A stretch of 64,000 bases of DNA, from positions 372,001-436,000 of the forward strand of contig JAUFSD010000020.1 in NCBI GenBank assembly GCA_033030425.1, in the 5' to 3' direction. The number at the start of each line of letters is the position of its first letter. Positions within the stretch are counted from its first letter, which is position 1. The position numbers and the translations under genes were made by a program. The notes under the pieces were generated by a model that saw only the letters and a list, made by a program, of their open reading frames with translations, made no database searches and had not been told where the DNA came from. Positions 1 through 55,456 of this stretch are shown here, one piece after another. The stretch is from Verpa conica (taxonomy: Eukaryota > Ascomycota > Pezizomycetes > Pezizales > Morchellaceae).

Positions 1-2890
1 TTCCGGGTATGACTTCCTTGGGAGAATATACACAGCAGGATTGAGCATTTCTTTTGTATTGACACTGAGCCGGTAGAACCTAACCTATGATACGGCGGCG
101 TCAGTAGCGGTGATGGCGTATGGTCATCGCTACCTTGGGTTGACTCTGGTTCCAACACCTCCTGGCGTTCTATGTCTTCGGCACCTACGGTGGATGCTGG
201 AAAATCGTCATCACGGTCTGGGCCGGTTAGTTGATCGACAATGGGTGCGCATACAGGATATGACATGGTGGGAGGTAATCTATTGATGGGTGATCGCTTC
301 TGGGATTAAGGTTTTTTGGGTACCATTCTATCGGTATTTATAAAAGGTATAAGTAAGGCAGTGCTATTGTAGTTACGTTTATAGTTGGTGGGCATATTTA
401 TTCTAAGTTCGCCTTATTTTGCCGGGCGGAGATACTCACAGTGAGTGCACATTTACACATTTGTCTGACCCGAGTAGATAGTGGTGCGGTGGGGCCGTGC
501 GTTAGGCTGCAATAAAACGTTACCGACGTGCTGAAGCGGGGCTTAGCCTAGAAGATGGGGATCACAACATCTACGGGCAGATTCAGTATACTTAAATGAG
601 GCTTACTTCGACAAATATCGGAGCCGATACTAAAAACCTATTTGGTTGGATGATGTATTCTTCATCTACGTGTCCGCAGAGGAGTGGCAGTAAATGGGGA
701 AAAAGCAGCGAACCAAAAAACCCTAACCTTAGGCGAGAATGCAATGAACTTTGTCAAGTCGTATGTTACAAGAATCACCTTCTATCCCGGCGACGAGAAT
801 GAATCTCATGTTCCAGACAACTTGCAACATCTACAGACATGGGTAATATATCCGGTTATTGTAGCCTGGTACTGGCATCCTGGGGCGAGATACTTTGTTG
901 TTTCTACCAATCACTCGTTTCATTTGGGGCACTGGGCTGTGTTTGTTATTAGCTATTGCGGGTTCAGATGGGGTTTGGTCCGTTCTCATCACCATCATGA
1001 CCGGAATCTAGCCGTCCGATACAATAGTATAACCATATATAGCTACCTCGGAGGAGCCAAAGAACAGCTCCCCATACAGGGCAGCCAGATCTTGAGATGG
1101 CAGTTAATGCGTTTAGGGTAATCGGACCGTGATTAGTTCTGAAACCTAATAGCCCTGCACTATCAGGCTGGAGTCTTCGGACTGGTATGTTGGGCGGGGC
1201 ATATGTATAGAACGGCCACTAAGTCTAAAGCGGGCTAGACTCTATACGGCAGGACTGGTGGATCCAGGGTATAGTGGTCCGCCTAGAAGGCTCGTATCTT
1301 CATTCGATAGCTGAAAGTAAATACAAGTGCAATTGCATCTCTATATCCGATGTCAGTGTAATCCCTCGGAGTACTCTAGTCTGCCTTGTCTTATCTAGGC
1401 TGGTCATTGCTTGAGTTAGTTTCTCCCTACAAGGAAACTTATACTATTGGGCGTTGTCAGAAGAAAACCCTGGGAACTGTGGTAGGTTTATAGCCGTATG
1501 CAGACTACAATAATTTCCCGTCGGTCGCCTGTGCCCCACTTCAATAACGTCTGCTTTTCTTCTGTGGGACGGAATATATACTACCGTACTTCATCTTCGT
1601 TCGATACGGGGCTATCAGATTCATAAAGATTATAAGACGGTGTCTTGATGCACTTATTACTCGCAACCGTAAATCCAACACTCCCTACCCCGATCACATA
1701 CCTGTGTTCCTTCATCCATTCCTAGCCTAATTTCTCTAGAAACAATGCTCCACGTCGCTGCGTAAAGCACTTGAGTACATGTTGTGTCAATAGCATGGGG
1801 CGACGTATCAGGAATTTTTAATACACGTATTCCCTACGGTCATGTGGTTGTCTTGGCAACCGTGCCCCAATGCATAATTACGTCGGGGGTGCAAACGCTA
1901 CAGCCTCTACATAGGTTTATGGTACAGACGATACCGGGTGTAGCCGTAATTATTAATGTTGGACTGTAACACCGTTGTATGCATTGGCCGGATGCCTTGA
2001 CTGGGTAAGATATGAAAGCCCGCTGTAATCCGTCAGTGAACACGAGGCTGAGAGAAGTGGACTGCGCCCATCACATCAGCCCCATTTTTTATCTCTTCAT
2101 GGGCAGGGTTCTCACCTATATATCTCGGACTCGGAACGGTAAATCGATGGCTGTATCACGCACATCTAACACCCGTTTATTTTCTCGTATGTCCTGTTTT
2201 AGCTATAGCTTATCTGAAATAATATGTATTACAAATATTTCTCAATACCCAGTGCTCTGGGATTTTCTGCCTGAATCAGTTTAGTATTCATAGTGTTTAG
2301 TTTATTGGTGTAACAGCACTAGGAAAAACTCCCGCCAATATCTTTTGTAGCTATAAAAAATCCTCTTTATCTCCCGGTGAAAATTTATCGTTTTATTCTT
2401 AATGGTTGTATAGCACTGTATTCAAAAAGTAATTCTCATTAGCGGAAAGATCTATAATGATTTTAGGAGGGTAGCTCACGATACCGACCAACATCCATCA
2501 CTTCTAACATGTAGGTACTCATCCCCCTATCCTCCTCTGTACCGACCTTTTGCTAACTCAGTTCTTTCTAAACATACCGGCCAGAGTTTGAACTACACCA
2601 AAGCCTATGAAAAGGCACCAGAGCCCGAGTTCAGAGTCCGATAGCGGGTGGATCTGACAAGGATTTTTGGGAGAATTACGGAGTAGGGGCATATACGTAA
2701 AAGTGAATACATTAGTATTATAAAGTAGGTGTTAATCACGATAAAGACGGTAGACACGTACATACGCATGGCAGGGCGCTTGAACTTGATTCACACACTT
2801 TTCTCAATAGTGGATCATGTAAAAAGGGTAGATGTTGAAGAAACGGTGATATTTAGAGTGAGTAGAGTTTGTGTCGGATGTCAAAATTCG
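1..2890. other. Gene-free stretch
   Basis: Stop codons are frequent in all six frames. The longest open stretches (for example 684-1121 on plus) show no domain, no matching splice structure and no plausible neighbouring exon. I see no repeat with a second copy here until about 2,895. It is most likely old, decayed intergenic or transposon-derived DNA. Confidence 0.6.
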
Positions 2891-2894
2891 TGTC

Positions 2895-3835
2895 CGAGGA
2901 CCAGAAAGGGGGCTCATATTAAGCAGTGACATAGAATGGGTTCCGATATTTTACGCCAAGTCTGAAGGAGAAAGTTTTTTTCGCACAATGGGCCATGTCA
3001 ACAAAGAGAAAAAGATGAAAAATAAAAATCATAACAGCGGAGTATTTCCTATCTTACATTGCTAAACCCACAATCAATACACTCTGAATAAGCACTCAAA
3101 ATCACACTCGAATAAGGGCTATTTCAGTAACAAGTTACGGAAAAAAAAAATCATTCATCTACAAGAGTTTCACGTAGCGGAGGAAAAGAAGCAATGCAAA
3201 GTTATTCAAAGGATTTATGACTATTAGTTAATAGCTATCTGGAAGTAACATGAAGAAATACTCAAAAAACCCAATTCAAACACAAAAAGTAATCTTTTCA
3301 TTTCTACTTTCGATCCCTCGGCAGCGCCCAGGGACCAATAGTAAAAAAAAAAAAACTAGAAAAAAAAAAAAGGAAGCGAGAGAAAAAAGCGAGAGGGAGG
3401 AGAGGGAGAAGAGGGAGAAGAGAGAACACCAAAGAGAGTACCAGGGAGTGAGAGGAGGGGGGGGTGGCGGGGATGGCGAGCAGGAAGGCGAAGAGGAAGG
3501 CGAAGAGGAAGGCGATAAGGAGGAGGAGGAGGAGGAGGAGGAGGAGGAAGACCGGAAGGAGAAGAGCGCTGGGATAGCCTCCGGACGCTCCAGCATAGGC
3601 GGCGAACTTGCCCCTAAAGGCAGGAAGGGCTAGCTGCAAGCAGCTATAGGCACCGACCAGTTCGAGCACCAGAGCCGGCACAAGATCCCATGAAGAAGAG
3701 AAAGAGAGGGAGGAAGGTGCTGGTTATATAGAGCTTGGGTCAGGAGCGCCAAGCTTTATTTGGCCGCCGGGTACTCTTGGCGTTCAATTTGGCCGCCTGG
3801 GGCTCTTTGGCGTATGCCTAATGTATTTGGCCGAC
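2895..3835 (-). repeat. Dispersed ~0.9 kb repeat family with TATA box, copy A
   Basis: One of three copies (others at about 9,598-10,490 and 16,935-17,905). Read on the minus strand the order is: short tandem units built on GTCGGCCAAAT...GACGCCAAG (3,835 down to 3,750), a TATATAA box near 3,725, a conserved block that would encode LELVGAYSC and GKFAAY, a long purine/pyrimidine tract (3,350-3,570), the conserved sequence GAGGGATCGAAAGTAG, and finally CACAATGG and AGCCCCCTTT-like ends. The long Glu-rich and Leu-rich reading frames here come only from the GGA/GAA tract and are not treated as genes. The element could be a non-autonomous transposon or an LTR-like promoter unit. No terminal repeat or target duplication was identified. 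Confidence 0.7.
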
Positions 3836-4983
3836 AAGATATCTACCCTGAGGTGAGTACTTGTAATGGGAACTCTACCAACAGGAGTTATTTCGATGTT
3901 TTCCTGTAATATTACCCCTATTTGGCACCTGATTAGGATGGTGAGTGACTTTTCAAATGCAGTAAAGTAAACACAGTGGTCTGTTTGGTCTTTGGGAATT
4001 TATCTCTACCTTACATACATCCCTGATCTCGGCCGTGACCAGCCTGCTGCTGAGGAGACTCCCTTAAGATACTAGCACGGGCTGTTGAGGAAGTTCAACA
4101 CTCTTTTGCTTCGGATGGGCTGGTAAGGATGCTACGGCAAGACACCGGATCCTCATTGAAATCTCTCCGCAAAAAAGAGGGGTCCGCGGATAGCGTATAA
4201 GGGCACGAGTTTCGTGGTATCGAGTGTAGAGATGAATTGCTTGTATCGTAATAGTGCTATAAGATGGAATTGGTCGAGCCTACCGAGCCTGATGGTGGAA
4301 AATACAAGAATCAACTACGATAGCCGCTTGGGAACTGCCAAGGATTCTAGAAAGACATCCAACCAAGACAAGCGCAGGATCGCAAACCTATCGCAGACAC
4401 TACATGCGACAATACCTTGAGAGTAGTGAGCTCGTATCTCTCAAGATAAGGCTAGCACTAGTAGCTTTAAGTAAATAACTGTTTTCGGCTAATCGGGCGT
4501 CTTTCCCGAAACCGTTTTTGTTCTACGCTAAAAGAGTACTGCTCTACAAACCCTGCACAAGACATGGTGCATATTTTGTGCGACATTTGGTTGGACAGAG
4601 GACCTATTGCAGCTTGTAGCTATAGATAGAAGTAGCAGTATTTGTGATTAACATCCATTCAGTGACTGGTAAATGAATAGTCACTTGAGCTGTCGGCTGT
4701 GATGAAACTCGCTCTTGCTAAATACGAGTGATAATTTGTGGACTAGTAGTAAAAGTAACCATACGACCCACAAATGAATCATTTTTAAGTGACGTAACAA
4801 ATATTCTTATAACGCTTGATAATTGTAATCGTTGAAGAATCGGATTAAACATTTAGATAGTATCCAAAGGTGTTGCCGTGACGTGGTCCTAAGCTCAGCT
4901 CTTACTGCATTACCTGTGAATGAATGAATGAATTAATCATAAGTATATGTAGCCGAAAGGCTAAGGTACATGCACCCCACACT
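3836..4983. other. Gene-free stretch
   Basis: No reading frame with recognisable content and no splice-linked exon series. Nothing supportable was seen except ordinary AT-rich intergenic sequence and a short (GAAT)n run at about 4,918. Confidence 0.5.
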
Positions 4984-5463: not shown

Positions 5464-8400
5464 TATAACACAACACTAATAAAACAAAAAACAAAAATAA
5501 AGTAAATAAACGCTGCACCCAAAACAAAATCAAACTTCGCTCTCTGCCTGATCGCTACTCGCTATATCCTCCCACATATCCACCCCCACTCTTCTTCCTC
5601 TTCTGATTCTATTCCAACTTCCCGAAACACTCAGTCCTTCCTCGCTTTGCTTCTTTTCCTCTTAAATCTCCTCCACACCAAGGTGCCCCAGGCCCAATTA
5701 TTAGCGTTCGCCAGGTATAGGATGTCATGCCCTTACCTGTGGCAGCAATACACTACCTTAACACGGTCACCTTATAGGTTACTCGTCAATTCACGCCGCT
5801 CCCAAGTTGCTCTTATTAAGACGTAACTCACTTCAAAAAACACATTGCGCTGTTATTTTTTTAATTAACATCGCCGGCCCGAGATAGTGGTTCCTCTGAT
5901 GGGGTACAATTGGCTCATATAGAGGATCTCAAGCCATTGGATCGGCTTCATAGTATCGATATTCATTCAACCCCCATGTCATAGGATTGATATTACGGTC
6001 CTTGTTCGCAGACAATGTATTCGTTTTCTTCTTGAATCTGCGACTCTTTGTACCGAGATTTCTACTTCCTCGCTCTGTATTTTGAAATATGGGTCAAAAA
6101 GAACTACAATTAGTCCAGGCGAGTCTGAGTTCATCTACCAATAAATATTGAGAATTGTCAATGTTTCACAGCAAGTCCTCAAAGGATCAAGTTATAAAAC
6201 ATCTCATAGCCTTTGATTACATTAGTCTGGCTCAATGAAACTGTCAGATCGGGATTGGAACTCCTAGTGAGGGACACCAGGCAGCGTCAAGACAGATAGG
6301 AAGAGCATCAAGTATGTAAATAATTCTAATAATATCTCAGTCAGAGGCTTGAGTGAACTGGCCGGGGCTAAATAGCTGTTAGTATATATTAATTACTGGA
6401 TGATTGGTAGTAGAATTCATATAAAGAGTCTCCACTAATAGTGGGAATTTGACATTATATTCCCCACCCCCTCATGTGAAGTATTTATCACATATACCAC
6501 TGCATGGAGCTCTGACTGTCTTCTGTGACTTGTTCAACCGCTGTATTTTCCAGCCCTCTCTTTCTTGAATCAATTGCTTTTTCAGGTGCTTTCCTCAATA
6601 AGGAGTTTCATGCAGAGTGCCGTAAGAATGTAGGTACTTTTGTGATCACCGAGTCCACTGCCAGTAATTATTCAAGGGTCAACGCTTACTAAATTCATAG
6701 TATTTAATACTTAGGAAATATACTACTAGAGTAATATACAATCAACGAAAACTCCCCACAAGATGAAAGAACACCCGGCCTTCTTCCTCCGTTTCCTTTT
6801 TTGCCGTGAGCTCTTATCCCGGGTGCCTGATCTTACAATTAACCTGGCTCTGGTGATCACATCTATCTTTGCAATTTGACTGTTCCCTTACACTTATGAC
6901 TCTTAGTACCGGCCCAAGTCAGCCTCCGGCCCCAGTCATAATCTAGTTGGTATTAGCTAAATATGATCTTGGTGCACCCATTTCGATTTCAATGGCAAAA
7001 TATAGTTCGACGGCAGCTCTCGGATGTAACAACTACAACATGACGTAAGTTCTGTTCCATCACTGGAATATTGCTTGGGTGTCTCTTGATCGTGTCTGAC
7101 CTACTTTCGTGTCCCGCATGGCTTTATTTGTTAAATTTTAAATGCCAGGCATGGGGGTTCTGATCGTTTTCGCCGGAGCCTTTATGAACTTAACTTTGAT
7201 ATGTAGCTTTGCGCAATTCTTAAATACATGCTGTTGACACTTATAATATTCTGCTTTCTCTTTCTGTTCTTTGAAACACCATAGTTAGTGATTCTGGCGA
7301 TAGAGACTGAAGTACCTATTATGCCTTAGATTAATGATGTTTCTTAAACTTCATAGAAATATTTCTATCCCGTTTTATACTACCCAAGTGCTAATTTTAA
7401 GAATATCTGGAATCAGTGTGTTGGGAGCTGTGTTCTCGATAGTTACATTTTAATATCGAGCGTATCAAACCTTCGAACGCATAGGTAGCGTGGTGTAAAC
7501 ATTCACGAGCGTGGAGAGTTTGCAGGCTCCTGAAGCTAACTACGTAGTGATGTAGCTTATAGTCTTAATCTACCCGGTGATTAATACATAGGTTTGTTAC
7601 TTCAGTGCCGAAGCCCCATGGGTAAAGTGTAGTGGCAACCCGACCGACAGGATTGTTGTGGGACTTCACATCGATTGAGCTCAGCTGTTGAAACATAGCT
7701 TGGTACTTCGGGTGATGCCTTTGCGCGATATTTATATGACATGTGGGTCACTCTACTCTATTAATTTGTTCATAGTATTGGTTCCAATTATCCGAAAACG
7801 GGATTGGGTTCCGCAGCGAATACAAGTCAGAAATCTTGGCCTCCCGTCACAGGCATGCCTGAGTGATTTTAACTTACTTCAAACATTAGCGGGGGATGGT
7901 CAGAGCCCGGACCCAGGCTTTATTTCTTATTTTCTAGCTGCTTACAGGCCTTCTCCATATAATTGGAAACTGGTAGGTCTAAGTAATGCTGATGAAATGG
8001 GGGAATAGCTATAGTTGGGGTAGTATATCTTGCAGCATAAGGGGCCCATGCAGAGGTTGGCAGTTACTCATAGCGTTGTAATCGATGGTGATACCTACGG
8101 GCGGGAGTTGCTTCACGAGTTATCCAGCGTTTGTAAGAGGCAGGCCTTGTTGTAGATTCGCCGGAGTGCTGATGCTATTTTGATTTTGGACGTCATCTAA
8201 CGGTCAATTATGTAGGTTAGCGTATCTCTCTAAATATTTACCAAGACAAGATTGGCGTTACTCGTTTCCTTGTAACTGTTCCTAGTCGGTCACTAAAAAC
8301 AGGTATTGCGGATAGACTATGAGGTGAAGACAGTAAGGGCAATGATTACACGAGCGATGTCCATAGAACCACCCTATTACCAAGGGTAGTAGTTATATGC

Positions 8401-20151: not shown

Positions 20152-23091
20152 CTACAAGAAGCCAGATTCTAGTAACAGATGTCTGAGCCAAATTCCATCA
20201 TGGAGCTGTATTTTTTGGTCTATCGAATCCCTCCAGAGAAGGCGGGATTCTATGTCAGCCTGAGTGGAGGCTTCACTCGATAGTTGTGTTTCGGGCTCGG
20301 TATTGGGTCTAAACAGTTCCCGCATATGGGCAAGAATCCTCGTAGAATCTAGCCGAAGAGTGACCCTAGGCTCTAACATCAACATAACTCCCATCAAGAG
20401 GTGGCGCATCTTTTTAGAACAGCCAGGTACCATTCCCAAGGAAGTAATCCACTCATTCATCTTGTGCTTCAGTCCCCTAGAGCTATTAAGTCCAAGGGAA
20501 GTAATCTTCCGAGGGATAGCTTTCTGGAGATCCTCAACCCCTTGGGACCCATGGAGCATATATGTGGCAACGAAACAGAACACACAGCCTAAAGACCATA
20601 TGTCCATTGGAGAATTATCCTCATAACCCGGTTTCTTGCCCGGCCGTAGCCATGAGCCCCGAGGGTACGGACAATTGGCTTCAGGAGATGCAAAAGAGAC
20701 TGCACCGTAGGTGATGGAGTTGGGGTCTTGCTGGCCATATTTCAACCGCAGGTTATCAAAGCCTGATAATACCAACCTTCCCCTCATAACGAGAATAGTA
20801 TAAGGAGTAATCTTTTGATGATACCTGAACGTAGCTGCTTTATCATGTGAGGCGGTCGCAGCAGAGGTGTGAATCGAATTAAGCGCATGTGATAATCCGA
20901 GAATAGAATCATAGAATGAAGAATCGTTCAAAAATTCTGGATGTCGCTGACTGTTTTCGAACATCTCATGGAGAGTTGTTTCAGCGTAAGGAAATATTAG
21001 GAAATCGGTACCCATATGAGAATATGACCCCAGGAGACTAATGATATTGGGGTGCTGAAGCCTTTTCAAGTGCTTATAGGTATCGAGCTGTAGGGCAATA
21101 TCATAGTCGTGGCTAACTTTCCTTAAGGCGACTACAAGTACATCCTGAAAAATACAGAGTGATTAGAGGGAGTTGATGCTAGTCCACACTTATTGGTAGA
21201 AAGCTTACCTTTTCCCTAACCTCATCGGAACTGCAAGTTGGAGTGGAACGGGTTGCCTGTAAAGGATGTTAGAAGGTCGAGGTGGGGTGTATTTAGAAAC
21301 GTACCTGGTGTGGCAATTCCCCTAGACCCATTTGGTGGATACAATAAATCTCTACTTTAGAAAATGTAGTGTCCAGTCTTTCTATCACCTCCTCACTATG
21401 GAAAGGTAATATGATATCGTTATGTAACTCGAGGTGTACGCTATCAAATGTAGGGGACAGATATTCCCACTGGGTCTCGTAGAATCCACTGATGGCACTT
21501 ACAACCGACTCTGCAAATGGTAGGTCTACATCCCTGCTATGCATGAGACTGATAATCTTCTCAGGCTTCCGTACCCATATGAGAATACAGAACAACTTCT
21601 TTGAGTAATTTAGGATAGTGTCGACAATTTCCGATAGATCACCTAGGGCTGTTTTGAACCCCTGATCAGGACTAACACAGTTGATAATTGCCCTTACACT
21701 GTCCTCGGTTAAAAGACGCCCGATGACGGGGCGAGGAATAAAATGCTGCCCCTTCACATTAGTTTCTAGTCGACTCTCTTTGATGCGATCTCTCAGCCTT
21801 TCCATTGGGGAAACATCTATTCACTATATGAGTATGCTAGGCAGCTTAAAAGGAGACAAGAACGAGGACCCTTACCAATCGGATCTGGAATGACATCCCC
21901 CCAGCACCCTGGCTGGGATAGTACAGCCGCCGACGGACCATTGGAAACTCCTGATGGACTGAGGGCAAACTGGTGTAGCTTTGGAGCGCCCAAAAGGGGT
22001 TTTATAAAACCAATCTCCTTCAGATAATCTCCATTCAAGATTTCACTCGCGGAGGCTCGACTACTAGGATCTGCAACTAGTAAACTCCTTACTAAGCTGA
22101 TCCCACTATCATTCACCTGGCATATCTCCATGTACTTCACTGGAAATGTAGTTTTCCCCAAGCAGAAATTAAATAGGGCAACTATATCAGTCTCATCTGA
22201 GTCCAAAAGTATTGTGTCAGGCGCTATACCTGAAACAGTTGTAGAACTGTCTGTATCTTCGCAGAAAGGTGTTCTTGAGGTGAGGATTTTGTGTATTATA
22301 CACCCTAGCGCCCACATATCGACAGCATTTGTATAAGACTTTCGTGTTGGTACTCCTGGGAGTATTCCTAACATCTCAGGTGCAAAGTAGCCAGGCGTCC
22401 AAACTTGGGTAATTAGTTCGGTGCCTTCTTCGTTTTTGGAGCCTCCGAAATCTGCGATCTTAACCCATATTGGGTCCGGTGAAACAATAAGTATATTCTG
22501 TATTAATGACTTAGTATACTGCGATATATAATGATAGGGACTCCAGACCTGGGGCTTGAGGTCTCGATGACATATTTTTCTTTCGTGGAGGACGGAAAGA
22601 CCCTCAAGCAGCTGTTGAGTAATTTCTCTAACATTATGTGCAGCACCGGGGGTCTTGATATATTGGTACAAGTCTCCATGCTCGATGTACTCCATAGCAA
22701 TGAAAATGAAGTCTTTGTCCCCGTACCAGCCGATGAATGATACGAATAATTGTTTGTGCTAGTGCCCCTTATGTTTAGCGCCATCCGTAGCAGCAGTTCG
22801 GGTATAATGGTTACAGACATCCGTTAATGCGGATAACGTTTTTAATTCCCGGGAATAATCAAGGCCTTTTCGGCTTCGCGACAACTTCTTTACTGCTCTA
22901 AGCTGACCTCCATCGGATTCCTGTAAGATGACAGTACCGAACGCCCCAGACCCCAGCTCACACTTTTCGGACCAGCTCGTAATAATTTGCTCGTGACCCT
23001 CAGTAGAGATACTTTGGATAATATGGTCCTTGTGGATGATGACGTCTAGCTGGTAGTCGTTAAGGCTGGGTTGATTTAGTGTAGTCTCCAT
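20152..23091 (-). CDS. Tandem kinase-pseudokinase protein (six exons, 885 aa)
   Basis: Minus-strand exons: 23091-22819, 22758-22549, 22497-21876, 21816-21305, 21256-21209, 21144-20152. Every junction keeps phase. The N-terminal half is a Ser/Thr kinase with Gly loop LGSGAFGTV (about residue 46), Lys in LRAVKKL, MEYIEHGDL, HRDLKPQ|NIL split by an intron, IADFGGSK, FAPEM and MWALGC. The middle (about 370-540) resembles a module that precedes many Pezizomycotina kinases (FIPRPVIGRLL, KKLFCILIW, ILPF). The C-terminal half (555-885) is a degenerate kinase: the Gly loop is lost, VVALRKV keeps a Lys, the HRD position reads YHQK, DFG reads SGF, but SPE and DIWSLGC remain, so it should be a pseudokinase. 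The first kinase frame stops 12 bases before the next ATG. The G|GTAAGG donor at 21875 and the AATAG acceptor at 21817 join them in phase (DPI-DVSPMERL), which favours one gene. Introns 1 and 2 start GTCTGT and GTCTGG, which is unusual. Confidence 0.85.
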
Positions 23092-48763: not shown

Positions 48764-50170
48764 CTATACAGTTGTATTGACGAGTATGAGGTATACATGT
48801 TCTTGTATGTACAACCGTTGATTTGCGTTTATGATGACTCTTAATTGTGTGTCATTAGGAGGAGCACCTAACGCTGCTGCCGTTGGGGTGTCTGACGGTT
48901 CAGATGTGGATGATGCAGTTGAATTCATAGTAGGACTTGAGGACTCTATTCCGTCTAATCCAACGGGGCTTTGGAACAGTACACCTTCCGTATTAGGACT
49001 TGATGGATAGGGTTCCTCTGCTTCATTTAATATCCAGGCACTATTCAAAGCTTCAGCTGCAGATATTCGGGAGCGAGGATTAGTAACCAGCAAAGACTTC
49101 ACAAACTCGATCCCGTCATTGCTGATATTTGCACCCCGCAACGCTGCATCTGGAAAGGTTATGTCCCCACAACAATACTTAGAAAAACGATTCATATCCA
49201 TGACTAGCACTTCGCGTTGTCCTTGTCTTACTTCCACTCCAGAGTCAATGTCCGAATCAAAAGTGGGGGCGTCTCGGAGCAAGAATGGTAGGTCTCGAGT
49301 CAAAATTACATGCGTCAAGACACCTAGGGACCGGATATCGACAAGGTTGGTATAAGACCCGCTGGAGTTGCGTAGGGAAAACCCTTGTAACTCTGGGGCC
49401 AGATAAAATAAACTGCCACAAGATGTTCGCAAGGATGTATTGTTTTGGTGCTTCGATAGACCAAAGTCGGCAATTTTTATCCGGAATGGTGATATAGAAG
49501 AGATAAGAATGTTCTGTAGTTGAGTAAGTATGTATATATATACGTTGGTAAAGGGACAATCACTAGGGGCTGAACCTTTGGTTTAATGTCGCGGTGGCAT
49601 ATGTTTTGTGTATGTAGTATAACGAGGCCTTTAAGTATCTGGGTTACGATAATCTTTGCCTGAAGCTTAGCGCTTGCCCCAGAGGTTTGGAGATATTGAC
49701 TTAAATCCCCATGCTCTATGTACTCCATAGCGAAGAAGACATAACCTTTGGCTTCATCCTCGTACCACCCTAGGAACTGTACGAACAGTGACTGACTTGA
49801 ATCCTATTTCCTCGAGATAAGCCTTATATTTGATCTCAAATACAACACACAGGAAAGGGCTCACATCTCGCAATCGCGCCAAAATATCCAACTCCCGTGA
49901 CCAATTTAAACCCTTCACTTCCTGAGGTACTCGCTTTACAGCCCGTAACGAACCCCCTCGCCCTTTTTGCCCTTCGTCGTCTGCCTCTTCAAGCCATACT
50001 ACTCCAAATCCTCCGATACCTATATCTTTTTTATACCTCCACTTTATGCGAGTTTCAACCGCCGGACCATCCTCCTCCGTCGCAGGAGTTTGTATAGTGT
50101 GGATTGTACAATCGTCGAGGAATGTCGTTTTTAGTTTATGTTGATCCATTTGCAAATGATGCACAGCCAT
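48764..50170 (-). CDS. Serine/threonine protein kinase (three exons, 423 aa)
   Basis: Exons 50170-49865, 49791-49576 and 49513-48764, with introns of 73 nt (GTGAGC) and 62 nt (GTTCAG...CAACTACAG), phase 0 at both. Kinase landmarks: IGIGGFGVVW (about residue 52), AVKRV, LFVQFLGWYEDE, MEYIEHGDL, CHRDIKPK|NIL with the intron inside the catalytic loop, IADFGLSKH and YLAPEL. The DxWSLG motif reads DIRSLG. The 75-residue tail after the domain is Ser/Thr-rich. Both intron positions and the MEYIEHGDL text are shared with the first half of the gene at 20,152-23,091, so the two are paralogues. This copy lacks the C-terminal pseudokinase. Likely an active cytosolic kinase. Substrate unknown. The downstream hydrolase pseudogene is on the same strand. 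Confidence 0.85.
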
Positions 50171-52200: not shown

Positions 52201-55200
52201 TTAGTTTAGACCAGATGTAGCACTCTCGCTGCGAGTAGTATTATAACGTCGGTCTCCCATGATTTTCCTGTGGCCCGCCCATTGAGTCTTTATTTACAGC
52301 TTTCGGGTAGTCAAGCCAGACTCACTCGCTTCAGAGTCGGCAGTCAAGACATGATCAGCAGATCATTATAGCCTCAAGTAAGAATGTTACTTACATCTTC
52401 CACGCGCTGGACATGTTATGTTAGGTCAGAAGATGGTCATTATTGGTTATTATAGCTGAACGTACCTGAATTCATTGCACGAAAGAACCAACTCTTAGGA
52501 CTGAGCTACGAGGGTGATGTATAGGGTCCAACTTACTCACTACACACCCACCAAGCATACGAGGATGAGCCCATGACCATGGAGAGGATGTAGGGTCGAA
52601 CTCACAAACTACACAACCGCCAAGCAAGCGAGGATAAGCACATGACCATGGAGAGGATGTAGGGTTCAACTCACAAACTACACAACCGCCAAGCAAGCGA
52701 GGATAAGCACATGACCATGGAGAGGATGTAGGGTCCAACTCACTAACTACACACCCACGAAGCAAGCGAGGATAAGCACATGACCATGGAGAGGATGTAG
52801 GGTCCAACTCACGGACTACACACCCACGAAGCAAGCGAGGATAAGCACATGACCATGGAGAGGATGTACGGTCCAACTCACGGACTACACACCAAGCAAG
52901 CGAGGATAAGCACATGACCATGGAGAGGATGCAGGGTCCAACTCACCGACTACACACCAAGCAAGCGAGGATAAGCACATGACCATGGAGAGGATGTAGG
53001 GTCCAACTCACTAACTACACACCCACGAAGCAAGCGAGGATAAGCACATGACCATGGAGAGGATGTAGGGTCCAACTCACTAACTACACACCCACGAAGC
53101 AAGCGAGGATAAGCACATGACCATGGAGAGGATGTAGGGTCCAACTCACCGACTACACACCAAGCAAGCGAGGATAAGCACATGACCATGGAGAGGATGT
53201 AGGGTCCAACTCACTAACTACACACCCACGAAGCAAGCGAGGATAAGCACATGACCATGGAGAGGATGTACGGTCCAACTCACTGACTACACACCAAGCA
53301 AGCGAGGATGAGCCCATGACCATGGAGAGGATGTAGGGTCCAACTCACTAACTACACACCCACCGAGGAAGTCACCATCAGTAGCTTGTCATTGACAACA
53401 ACTGAGGTCGAACTTACCCACTATCACAGAAGAAGTCACAGTAGCATTAGTAACTACCAGTTAATAGTTAGGTTATGACTTACATTCTACCAGTTCATAA
53501 GTTTAACGAGGGTCAGCACCTCATTAGTCCCAGAATTTCGTATATTACTTACATAGTACCTCTGTAACATGACCACGCTCAGCATCCTATCGGAAATACC
53601 ACTAAAGGTCCAACTTACCGACTATTACATCATTGAAGATACAAGACCCGTTGCTTAGCGATGGAGAGCACGAAAGATAAACTATTATTAAAATGAATCT
53701 CACCTATTACTACTTTATAGGTAATATACAGGTTAGTAGCTCATAATAGTGTAGGTGACGGTTTGACCTACGTAGGAATATAGCGACTGTTGTACTAGTA
53801 TTAATGAACCTTATAGCCTCTAGTAATGACACTACTCACTTACTAGTAAGTGAAATGTAGAGTAAGTATTAGTACCTATACAATATGATAGTATCTCTGT
53901 GACTTACACTCTAATAGTAACCCCCCCAAGTGGGATTAGCAGCTCGTAGTTAAAAGTTGTTAAGTGGTGACTTACATGCTATCAATACACCAGTGTGGCA
54001 ATGATCAGTATCTCATTCTAAATTATGCTCAGGATATAACTAACCAGCTGAGTTAACCAACCACCCGATGATTAGCAGGCCAATCAGATAGGATTAGTAC
54101 TAGTCGAGATATATCTTACTATCTGTTACATAGAATATATTAGAAATTGATATTTTTGCCAGCCAAACGGTAACTCACTTCTCAAGTGCTTGCTGAACGT
54201 CACCATCCCCTAAGTTGAGCTTCCGCGTAAGAACTTGTAAACGACGGAAGTGCTTGATATCGCCATCATCTAGCGGCGTATTGAGCTGTTCAGGTTCCAC
54301 TAGCAGTTTCTTAGTTGGTTCATATAGAATATCCGGCTCGCCTCCGTTGTCTGTAATGTCAGTAATACGCGGTTGCAATGATACTTGGAACCAAGTTGCA
54401 CAGCGGTTACTAAACATTTTCCACTATGGTAAGCCTACATTCCGTCTATTGCCATTTTGAAAACAGTAGCTCAGGTGCTCACCACTTCACACGCTTAAGC
54501 TCTTTCCCTATGTCCCCTGTATATCGATCGTTGCAAGATGGACAGTTGTGTTTTGTAATATCAGTAGCTTTTTGTTTGTGCAAGACCATAGCCATCGAAA
54601 GCATCACGCCAGGCTTGATACCAGTACACCACTCCTTTGCGGTCAAAGTGTTTCCAGTCGATTCATCCGCGATCATATACCTCCCGGCGTCAACCCAGCT
54701 TTTTCCGACCGACTCACGAAAGCTGAGCTTTAAGAGGTCTTGGAAATTCTAAACACAGTATGAGGTATCAGTACTATATGATGGTAATATTAGTTCGCGC
54801 ATGTTCAGTTATATCACATACCTCCCATGTCCTACACATTTCAAACGGAAATTTGATCTGTCTATCAAGTGCATCTATGAACCGGATCGGTTGAAAGTCG
54901 GCCCATGCATCAAGGTGCTGCGGAGCGGCTTCAACGCGCCTCCGTATCACGTCTTTTTCTTGCAACATTCTCCTATGAGTCGTGTTGTAAATGTCAGGCG
55001 TCCCCATTGAAGGATTGGGGCTCAGGCACCATAGAGTTGAGCAAAGGGTAATGCTTACATGTTGTAGGCGTTCAAGAAAAGATTGAACGAATTGATCTGT
55101 CCCTCGAGCTTCTCAACCAACTTCATCGATTCATCCTTTTTGTAAATCCCCCACCGGAGTTGCTTTAGGGAGGTCCCCTTTCCTCCGGGAATGCTGTTGT

Positions 55201-55456
55201 ATTTTGTGATCGATTTCTCGAGCTCCTGTAGGAGCTGATAACAGTTTTCGAGTTGCTTCTCGGCAATCTTTGCGGTTGGTGGCGATAGTTGACAGCGGGA
55301 AGTAACATCTTTAACCTCCTGGAGAGAGCAACGGAAGATCTCCAGCTTGAATACAAGCTCGAGGTGGTCGGCCGGGAATGAGCGGATGGACTCGCATACG
55401 TTAAGTGCAATTCCGGTAACTGCAATGAAGTCGCCGATGCTGAAACCAAATGACAT
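52201..55456 (-). CDS. STAND-type N-terminal/ubiquitin-like domain protein with a single-codon exon array (~30 exons, 406 aa)
   Basis: Start ATG 55,456 (MSFGFSIGDFIAVTG). Main exons: 55456-55059, 54972-54822, 54748-54491, 54423-54179. Residues 1-132 match the fungal N-terminal domain of STAND proteins. About 150-240 is a ubiquitin-like fold (PIRFIDALDRQIKFPFEMC, SWVDAGRYMIADESTG, EWCTGIKPG). HNCPSC and NRCATWF follow, a partial Zn-ribbon. Exon 4 ends GAG AA|GTGAGT instead of at its apparent stop. After it come exons of 3 nt (22 of them), 15 nt (53772-53786), 9 nt (53553-53561) and 12 nt (52395-52406), then the terminal exon 52267-52201 with stop TAA. All are multiples of 3, so phase 2 is kept throughout. 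The 35 residues they encode (about 351-385) have no stop and read on into AWKIEKIMGDRRY. Weak points: donor CGTGTGAAG for intron 3, and donor GTTAGT after the exon at 54,045. Confidence 0.75.
52505..53365 (-). repeat. 65/69-bp tandem array in which each unit is one intron plus one 3-nt exon
   Basis: Twelve near-identical units plus a diverged edge unit. On the minus strand each reads ...GTGTGTAG|NNN|GTGAGTTGGACC... . The 3-nt exons, in transcript order, start at 53349, 53284, 53215, 53150, 53081, 53012, 52947, 52882, 52813, 52744, 52675, 52606 and 52537. They read TTA TCA TTA TCG TTA TTA TCG TCC TCC TTA TTT TTT TGA. Spacings are 65 or 69 bp. The 4-bp indel (before GTGTGTAG) would wreck a coding repeat but is harmless inside an intron. 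The intron half is nearly invariant while exon bases 2 and 3 vary. Branch-site candidates are GCTTATC/GCTCATC, weaker than the CTGAC/CTAAT of the non-array introns. Confidence 0.85.
53418..54122 (-). other. Diverged single-codon exons upstream of the tandem array
   Basis: Non-repetitive introns of about 55-80 nt, each with a clear donor, branch site and AG. They bound 3-nt exons at 54120-54122 (ATA), 54045-54047 (CTG), 53976-53978 (CAT), 53908-53910 (AGT), 53840-53842 (TAA), 53619-53621 (TCG), 53484-53486 (AAT) and 53418-53420 (TGG), plus the 15-nt and 9-nt exons. Branch words such as TACTAAT and GCTGAC sit 20-35 nt before each AG. These units no longer resemble one another in sequence, so the architecture is older than the tandem array. 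Confidence 0.7.

What the first reader, a model, noticed from the sequence alone, without database searches (positions are those of the whole stretch)
52201..55456. A gene whose 3' part is a string of exons one codon long
Seen directly: on the minus strand, from 54,179 to 52,267, AG-NNN-GTRAGT recurs more than 20 times with 55-80 nt between. Joining every 3-nt piece plus the 15-, 9- and 12-nt pieces to the four upstream exons gives 1,221 nt (407 codons). There is one phase, no internal stop, and a terminal exon that ends in TAA. The odds of an in-phase, stop-free path through ~25 junctions followed by protein-like text (AWKIEKIMGDRRY) are low by chance. Known: 3-nt exons exist but are rare and normally single. 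A consecutive run of more than 20 is something I have not met in fungi. Inferred: the spliceosome here must define exons purely by introns, and the gene adds or loses residues by adding or losing introns.
Basis: partly seen in the sequence, partly recalled or inferred. Interest (0 to 1): 0.97.

Follow-up and report, generated by a model that had tools for sequence, protein, structure and literature searches.

The report
Gene tail of one-codon exons
A fungal gene, whose sister genes carry repeats of the kind used by immune receptors, has its last part broken into 26 small pieces, most of them three letters long, between short segments that carry the signals of introns and are likely cut out one by one; a sister gene carries a second such array with unrelated intron sequence, and truffles are already reported to have genes of this kind, so it is a striking new example rather than a first.

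Summary
Behind four ordinary exons, AG-NNN-GTRAGT occurs 20 times in 2 kb. Thirteen of these exons lie in a 69-nt minisatellite. The non-repetitive 5' part still has 8 AG-NNN-donor sites against 0.07 expected (maximum 2 in 2000 simulations).

New: a paralogue on another contig has 23 consecutive 3-nt exons between different introns. Chains of three GTRAGT sites occur 37 times in 45.8 Mb: 15 in this gene, 21 in the paralogue, 1 elsewhere; reversed controls 0. In the young arrays introns are nearly identical, while exon columns are the most variable. Other paralogues carry ankyrin or TPR repeats behind the same front part.

Runs of 3-bp exons are already reported for truffle NACHT-ANK receptor genes (passages of three papers). 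So this is a new variant of a known kind: no NACHT domain found, a different genome, two genes. Splicing is inferred; no RNA from the source could be examined.

The parts
55059..55456 (-). Exon 1: N-terminal region, HeLo-like below the Pfam cut-off
   Evidence: join; HeLo 18.4 bits, cut-off 23.2
54822..54972 (-). Exon 2: start of the ULD_2 domain
54483..54748 (-). Exon 3: rest of the ULD_2 domain and first half of a C..C / C..C knuckle
   Evidence: knuckle read from the sequence
54179..54409 (-). Exon 4: second half of the knuckle, FRR-like motif; ends in phase 2 at donor 54,178
53352..54178 (-). Older, non-repetitive part of the array: introns 1-12 with exons ATA CTG CAT AGT TAA (15 nt) (6 nt) TCG (9 nt) AAT TGG
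   Evidence: path; 8 AG-NNN-donor sites against 0.07 expected
52522..53371 (-). Young part of the array: minisatellite of 69/65-nt units, 13 three-nt exons (TTA TCA TTA TCG TTA TTA TCG TCC TCC TTA TTT TTT TGA) between near-identical introns
52268..52536 (-). Introns 25-27 with exons of 12 nt (52,406-52,395) and 3 nt (CGA, 52,328-52,326)
52201..52267 (-). Terminal exon, 67 nt, ends in TAA

Best explanation
The 3' part of this ULD_2 gene is an array of 27 intron-like segments with donor, branch-point-like motif and acceptor, which are likely spliced one by one, so that about 22 three-letter exons would be joined in frame and each would add one residue to a variable C-terminal tail. The young part is made of tandem 65/69-nt units of one intron and one codon (shown), so unit gain or loss adds or removes one intron and one residue (inferred). 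In the phase set by exon 4, a retained intron meets a stop within two codons in 26 of 27 cases (computed), so the extent of splicing would set the tail length (inferred). Near-identical introns around differing codons show that units are copied or homogenised while the codons change much faster (shown; cause unknown). Paralogues carry ankyrin or TPR repeats behind the same front part, so the array most likely encodes a diversified recognition or specificity segment of a receptor-like protein (inferred). It works like the 3-bp-exon arrays reported for Tuber melanosporum NACHT-ANK genes.
For: Spacing is 3 nt only: 20 sites here, 23 of 23 in the paralogue, against a flat background. Non-repetitive part: 8 sites against 0.07 expected. 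Whole genome: 36 of 37 three-site chains lie in two paralogues of one family, reversed controls 0, 4-nt-exon chains 0. The two arrays have unrelated introns, each found once in the genome. Branch-point-like motif 25-26 nt before the AG in introns 3-5, 10-12 and 26 although their bodies do not clearly match the young unit, apart from intron 12; CTRAC 25 nt before it in 21 of 22 paralogue introns, 23 nt in the other. Exon 4 sets the only open frame of three. Exons vary far more than introns. ANK or TPR repeats in paralogues. Precedent in Tuber (passages).
Against: No RNA was examined, and none of three protein searches returned a spliced product of this gene. The open frame has a chance of 0.18. 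The pieces between 53,839 and 53,553 and the 130-nt intron are ambiguous. In the paralogue both candidate exon-4 donors are the weak GTAGAT; one leaves the array open, the other meets a stop after 12 array codons. The terminal exon matched no homologue convincingly. A Tricharina homologue is annotated as ending shortly after the FRR-like motif. The HeLo match is below cut-off, and the model of a homologue is poor (pLDDT 56).
Confidence: 0.68

Rival explanations
1. The introns are real but lie behind the coding part: translation ends at the TGA at 54,175 or just after the first array introns, and the array is a spliced 3' UTR, perhaps tuning splicing or decay.
For: A stop overlaps the first donor in phase 2 in the window gene, and in the paralogue for its second candidate donor. 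The Tricharina protein ends shortly after the FRR-like motif. The paralogue's array has a stop in one of its two possible frames.
Against: A UTR gives no reason for exons of exactly 3 nt in two arrays with unrelated introns. The frame set by exon 4 is the only open one through the window's small exons. It does not explain the excess of exon change.
Confidence: 0.18
2. The whole array is removed between exon 4 and the terminal exon by successive or nested splicing, and the 3-nt pieces are steps of removal that are not kept in the mRNA.
For: A 1.9-kb intervening stretch made of short spliceable units could be removed stepwise; a possible AG|GT junction lies at 52,466/52,465 (sequence). Joining exon 4 straight to the terminal exon also keeps the frame (the small exons sum to 108 nt).
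Against: Removal by stages needs no 3 nt between acceptor and next donor, yet 3 nt is the rule. Exons are the most variable columns, which is not expected of discarded pieces.
Confidence: 0.08
3. A minisatellite that happens to carry splice-like sites, with no role in splicing.
For: TRF arrays with period 69 here and 71 in the paralogue: one unit copied many times gives many sites.
Against: The non-repetitive part shows the same sites. The only other array found lies in a paralogue, behind the same exon, with unrelated sequence.
Confidence: 0.04

Closest known systems
[quoted passage not shown] 2012, not held; known here from passages of PMC4986451, PMC10197012 and PMC9815663)
   Same: Dozens of 3-bp exons; the papers tie them to the C-terminal recognition part of a receptor family; Tuber is in Pezizales, as is Tricharina, the best named homologue
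   Different: No NACHT or ANK in the window gene; two genes instead of an expanded family; ULD_2 front part. Whether Tuber arrays show near-identical introns and hypervariable exons is not known to me
Micro-exon genes of Schistosoma (passages of PMC4350168)
   Same: Runs of very small symmetrical exons that keep the frame whichever are skipped
   Different: There most of the coding region is microexons; here 108 of 1,221 nt, mostly single codons, at the 3' end
Fungal NLR repeats (WD, ANK, TPR) with high internal conservation and variable codons under positive selection (PMC4986451, passages)
   Same: Near-identical repeat units with a few fast-changing codons
   Different: The conserved part of the unit is an intron and would not be translated
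Introner-like elements (PMC9860276, passages)
   Same: Multiplication of near-identical introns in fungi
   Different: No copy was found outside each array
Stwintrons (search listing and abstract starts only)
   Same: Adjacent fungal introns removed in succession
   Different: Each intron here has its own complete donor and acceptor with 3 nt between

Membership tests
Tuber-type NACHT-ANK microexon genes | Run of consecutive 3-bp exons | tested here: met
   By sequence; splicing not observed
Tuber-type NACHT-ANK microexon genes | NACHT and ANK domains in the same gene | tested here: not met
   Pfam scan of the 349 aa of exons 1-4 lists ULD_2 above its cut-off and five families below theirs; no NACHT, no ANK
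Tuber-type NACHT-ANK microexon genes | Expanded family with such arrays | tested here: not met
   Two genes with GTRAGT arrays in 45.8 Mb; other donor types not searched
Tuber-type NACHT-ANK microexon genes | Alternative splicing of the microexons | not testable with these tools
   No RNA data held
Schistosoma-type micro-exon genes | Most of the coding region in microexons | tested here: not met
   108 of 1,221 nt
Introner-like elements | Similar introns spread over many genes | tested here: not met
   One match each, the array itself; the tool skips simple repeats and very common words
Stwintrons | Internal intron splits a splice signal of an outer intron | tested here: inconclusive
   Complete signals per unit in the path; the AG|GT at 52,466/52,465 was not resolved
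ULD_2 proteins (PF22893) | Pfam curated score | tested here: met
   83.9 bits, cut-off 24.5
HeLo domain proteins (PF14479) | Pfam curated score | tested here: not met
   18.4 bits, cut-off 23.2

The most novel reading that the evidence does not exclude
The array is a device that diversifies a receptor tail in the germ line: introns are the recombining, homogenised repeat, the single codons between them are replaced many times faster than the introns by diversifying selection or a targeted mutation process, and tail length is set by how many introns are spliced. A recognition repeat is thus reduced to one variable codon per unit.
Probability: 0.35. Interest if true: 0.85.

Novelty: new variant of a known kind. 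Interest (0 to 1): 0.62.

Why it matters
It would show that one-codon exon arrays are not confined to the NACHT-ANK genes of truffles but also occur, with unrelated introns, in two paralogues of a ULD_2 family. Because near-identical introns flank each codon, the gene carries its own yardstick: exons differ about 6 to 35 times more per site than introns in unit pairs with up to 14 intron differences. That makes the question of selection against targeted mutation testable in a few strains. Introns separated by only 3 nt are also a severe test of intron definition, and gene models of this kind may end too early.

Tried and rejected
Chance: rejected by simulations of the non-repetitive part, reversed patterns and a 4-nt-exon pattern. 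Minisatellite alone: rejected. Introner spread: no copies found elsewhere. The one other three-site hit (C17:892984-893133) was only judged by eye from its printed letters: purine-rich and apparently without a branch point. Open frame as proof of coding: weak. Homology of the terminal exon with P0002: by eye, not convincing. Structure of the homologue P0005: poor (pLDDT 56); the 50 Foldseek rows shown are mostly ubiquitin-like, none of 769 with E <= 0.001. Codon-position signal of selection in the paralogue: flat (.70.71.78), undecided.

Iotti et al. 2012 is not held, so I cannot say what it shows about intron similarity or exon variability.

Full report
What is there. On the minus strand four exons (55,456-54,179, 1,046 nt) encode an N-terminal region with a sub-threshold HeLo match, a ULD_2 domain (E 9.4e-24) and a C..C / C..C knuckle read from the sequence. 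Named homologues are Tricharina praecox, Wilcoxina mikolae and Geopyxis carbonaria and a distant Aureobasidium protein (E 6.2e-4). Tricharina is in Pezizales; the other two were not looked up. That the source is a relative of Pezizales is inferred.

The array. A chain of 27 introns leads from exon 4 to a 67-nt terminal exon: 22 exons of 3 nt and four of 15, 6, 9 and 12 nt. The path-finding weights were set from memory of fungal splice signals. Thirteen of the 3-nt exons lie in a minisatellite. In the non-repetitive part 54,178-53,352 there are 8 AG-NNN-donor sites and a chain of 5 introns, against means of 0.07 and 0.43 and maxima of 2 and 1 in 2000 simulations; the rest of the window gives chains of at most 1 on either strand. 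Compared with a young unit, intron bodies 1-11 score Z -0.5 to 2.4, intron 12 5.1, introns 13-24 13.4 to 18.1, and introns 25-27 2.7, 2.3 and -1.3. Yet introns 3-5, 10-12 and 26 are 63-66 nt long with a branch-point-like motif 25-26 nt before the AG, as in most of the young units. The simplest reading, an inference, is tandem duplication at different times with only the splice signals kept.

A second array. A search of the genome with the protein gave 25 matches, 5 of them the window gene itself. The best other locus, on C21 (L043), has 23 consecutive 3-nt exons behind its exon 4, between introns of 68-71 nt unrelated to those of the window. Three-site chains with GTRAGT donors: 33 (11 window gene, 21 paralogue, 1 on C17) and 4 (all window gene), 37 in all; reversed patterns 0 in both calls; the pattern with 4-nt exons 0. 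Six further family loci (L037-L042) have at most one AG-NNN-donor site on either strand. The weaker loci (on C5, C12, C18, C22, C23 and one on C8) were not inspected singly.

Exons change faster than introns. Paralogue (23 exons, 22 introns): diversity .70.71 and .78 at the exon positions, mean .12 and maximum .52 over 68 intron columns. Window, young part (13 exons, 12 introns): 0.60 and .69, against mean .066 and maximum .53 over 66 columns. Were all columns exchangeable, the three exon columns would rank first once in 57,155 and the two variable ones in the window once in 2,346; the second figure ignores the invariant exon column, and columns and units are not independent, so both are guides only. 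Of 4 pairs of identical introns in the paralogue, the downstream exon differs in 4 and the upstream one in 3; of 5 such pairs in the window, upstream differs in 4 but downstream in only 1. Unit pairs with up to 8 intron differences: paralogue .50-.54 exon against .014-.043 intron differences per site (10 pairs); window .28-.39 against .017-.046 (29 pairs). With 9-14 differences.65 against .086 (51 pairs) and .50 against .084 (24 pairs). Since older intron bodies have drifted apart, young introns look alike because they were copied recently, and the exons have changed unusually fast. I cannot tell diversifying selection from targeted mutation.

Frame. Exon 4 ends in phase 2, which is the only open frame of three through the window's small exons; 36 codons are free of stops by chance with probability 0.18. 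In this phase a retained intron gives a stop at the second codon in 20 of 27 cases, at the first in 6 and at the sixth in 1. In the paralogue the two candidate donors of exon 4 are both GTAGAT; the phase-0 one leaves the array open into every terminal acceptor tried, the phase-2 one meets a stop after 12 array codons. So its frame is undecided.

Context and function. In other members of the family the FRR-like motif is followed by ankyrin repeats (L040, C15) or TPR repeats (L041, C25), with ULD_2 in front; this was read from neighbouring open frames on one strand, not from joined genes. L042 (C15) also has a similar start and ankyrin repeats; its ULD_2 was not tested. In fungal NLRs such repeats are the part with high internal conservation and positively selected codons (PMC4986451, passages). 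From its position I infer that the microexon array makes a diversified specificity segment. Nothing here shows its partner or effect.

Novelty. [quoted passage not shown] PMC10197012 speaks of 3-bp long microexons, PMC9815663 of dozens of 3 bp mini-exons. I saw passages only. The kind is therefore known, in the same order as the best named homologue. What differs here is the lack of a NACHT domain, the number of genes, the unrelated introns of two arrays, the gradient from decayed to near-identical units, and the contrast between exons and introns. The listings of my 10 searches (named above) showed none of these for another gene, but the primary paper was not held.

Noticed in passing
L043 (G000:C21:1246501-1256000), 6,028-7,623, minus strand: Second array: 23 consecutive 3-nt exons in the closest paralogue, with introns unrelated to those of the window.
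   Followed up: yes
L041 (C25) 1,538-2,545, minus; L040 (C15) 2,667-4,817, plus; L042 (C15) 2,004-2,699, minus: Family members with near-identical TPR (126-nt period) or ankyrin (105-nt period in L040) repeats where the window gene has its array.
   Followed up: partly
L038 and L039 (C8): Two further family members without ANK or TPR repeats noticed; short 24-42-nt tandem repeats instead.
   Followed up: no
P0008 (Wilcoxina mikolae) and P0005 (Tricharina praecox): The Wilcoxina homologue is labelled partial and the Tricharina one ends shortly after the FRR-like motif; their gene models may have missed arrays of 3-nt exons (guess).
   Followed up: no
L043 about 1,040-2,060, minus strand: Open frame that resembles ORF1 of a LINE-type element, some 3-4 kb beyond the paralogue's array (by eye, from memory; not tested).
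   Followed up: no
window 20,152-22,695 and 48,764-50,170, minus strand: Pieces that look like protein-kinase genes (by eye; not tested).
   Followed up: no
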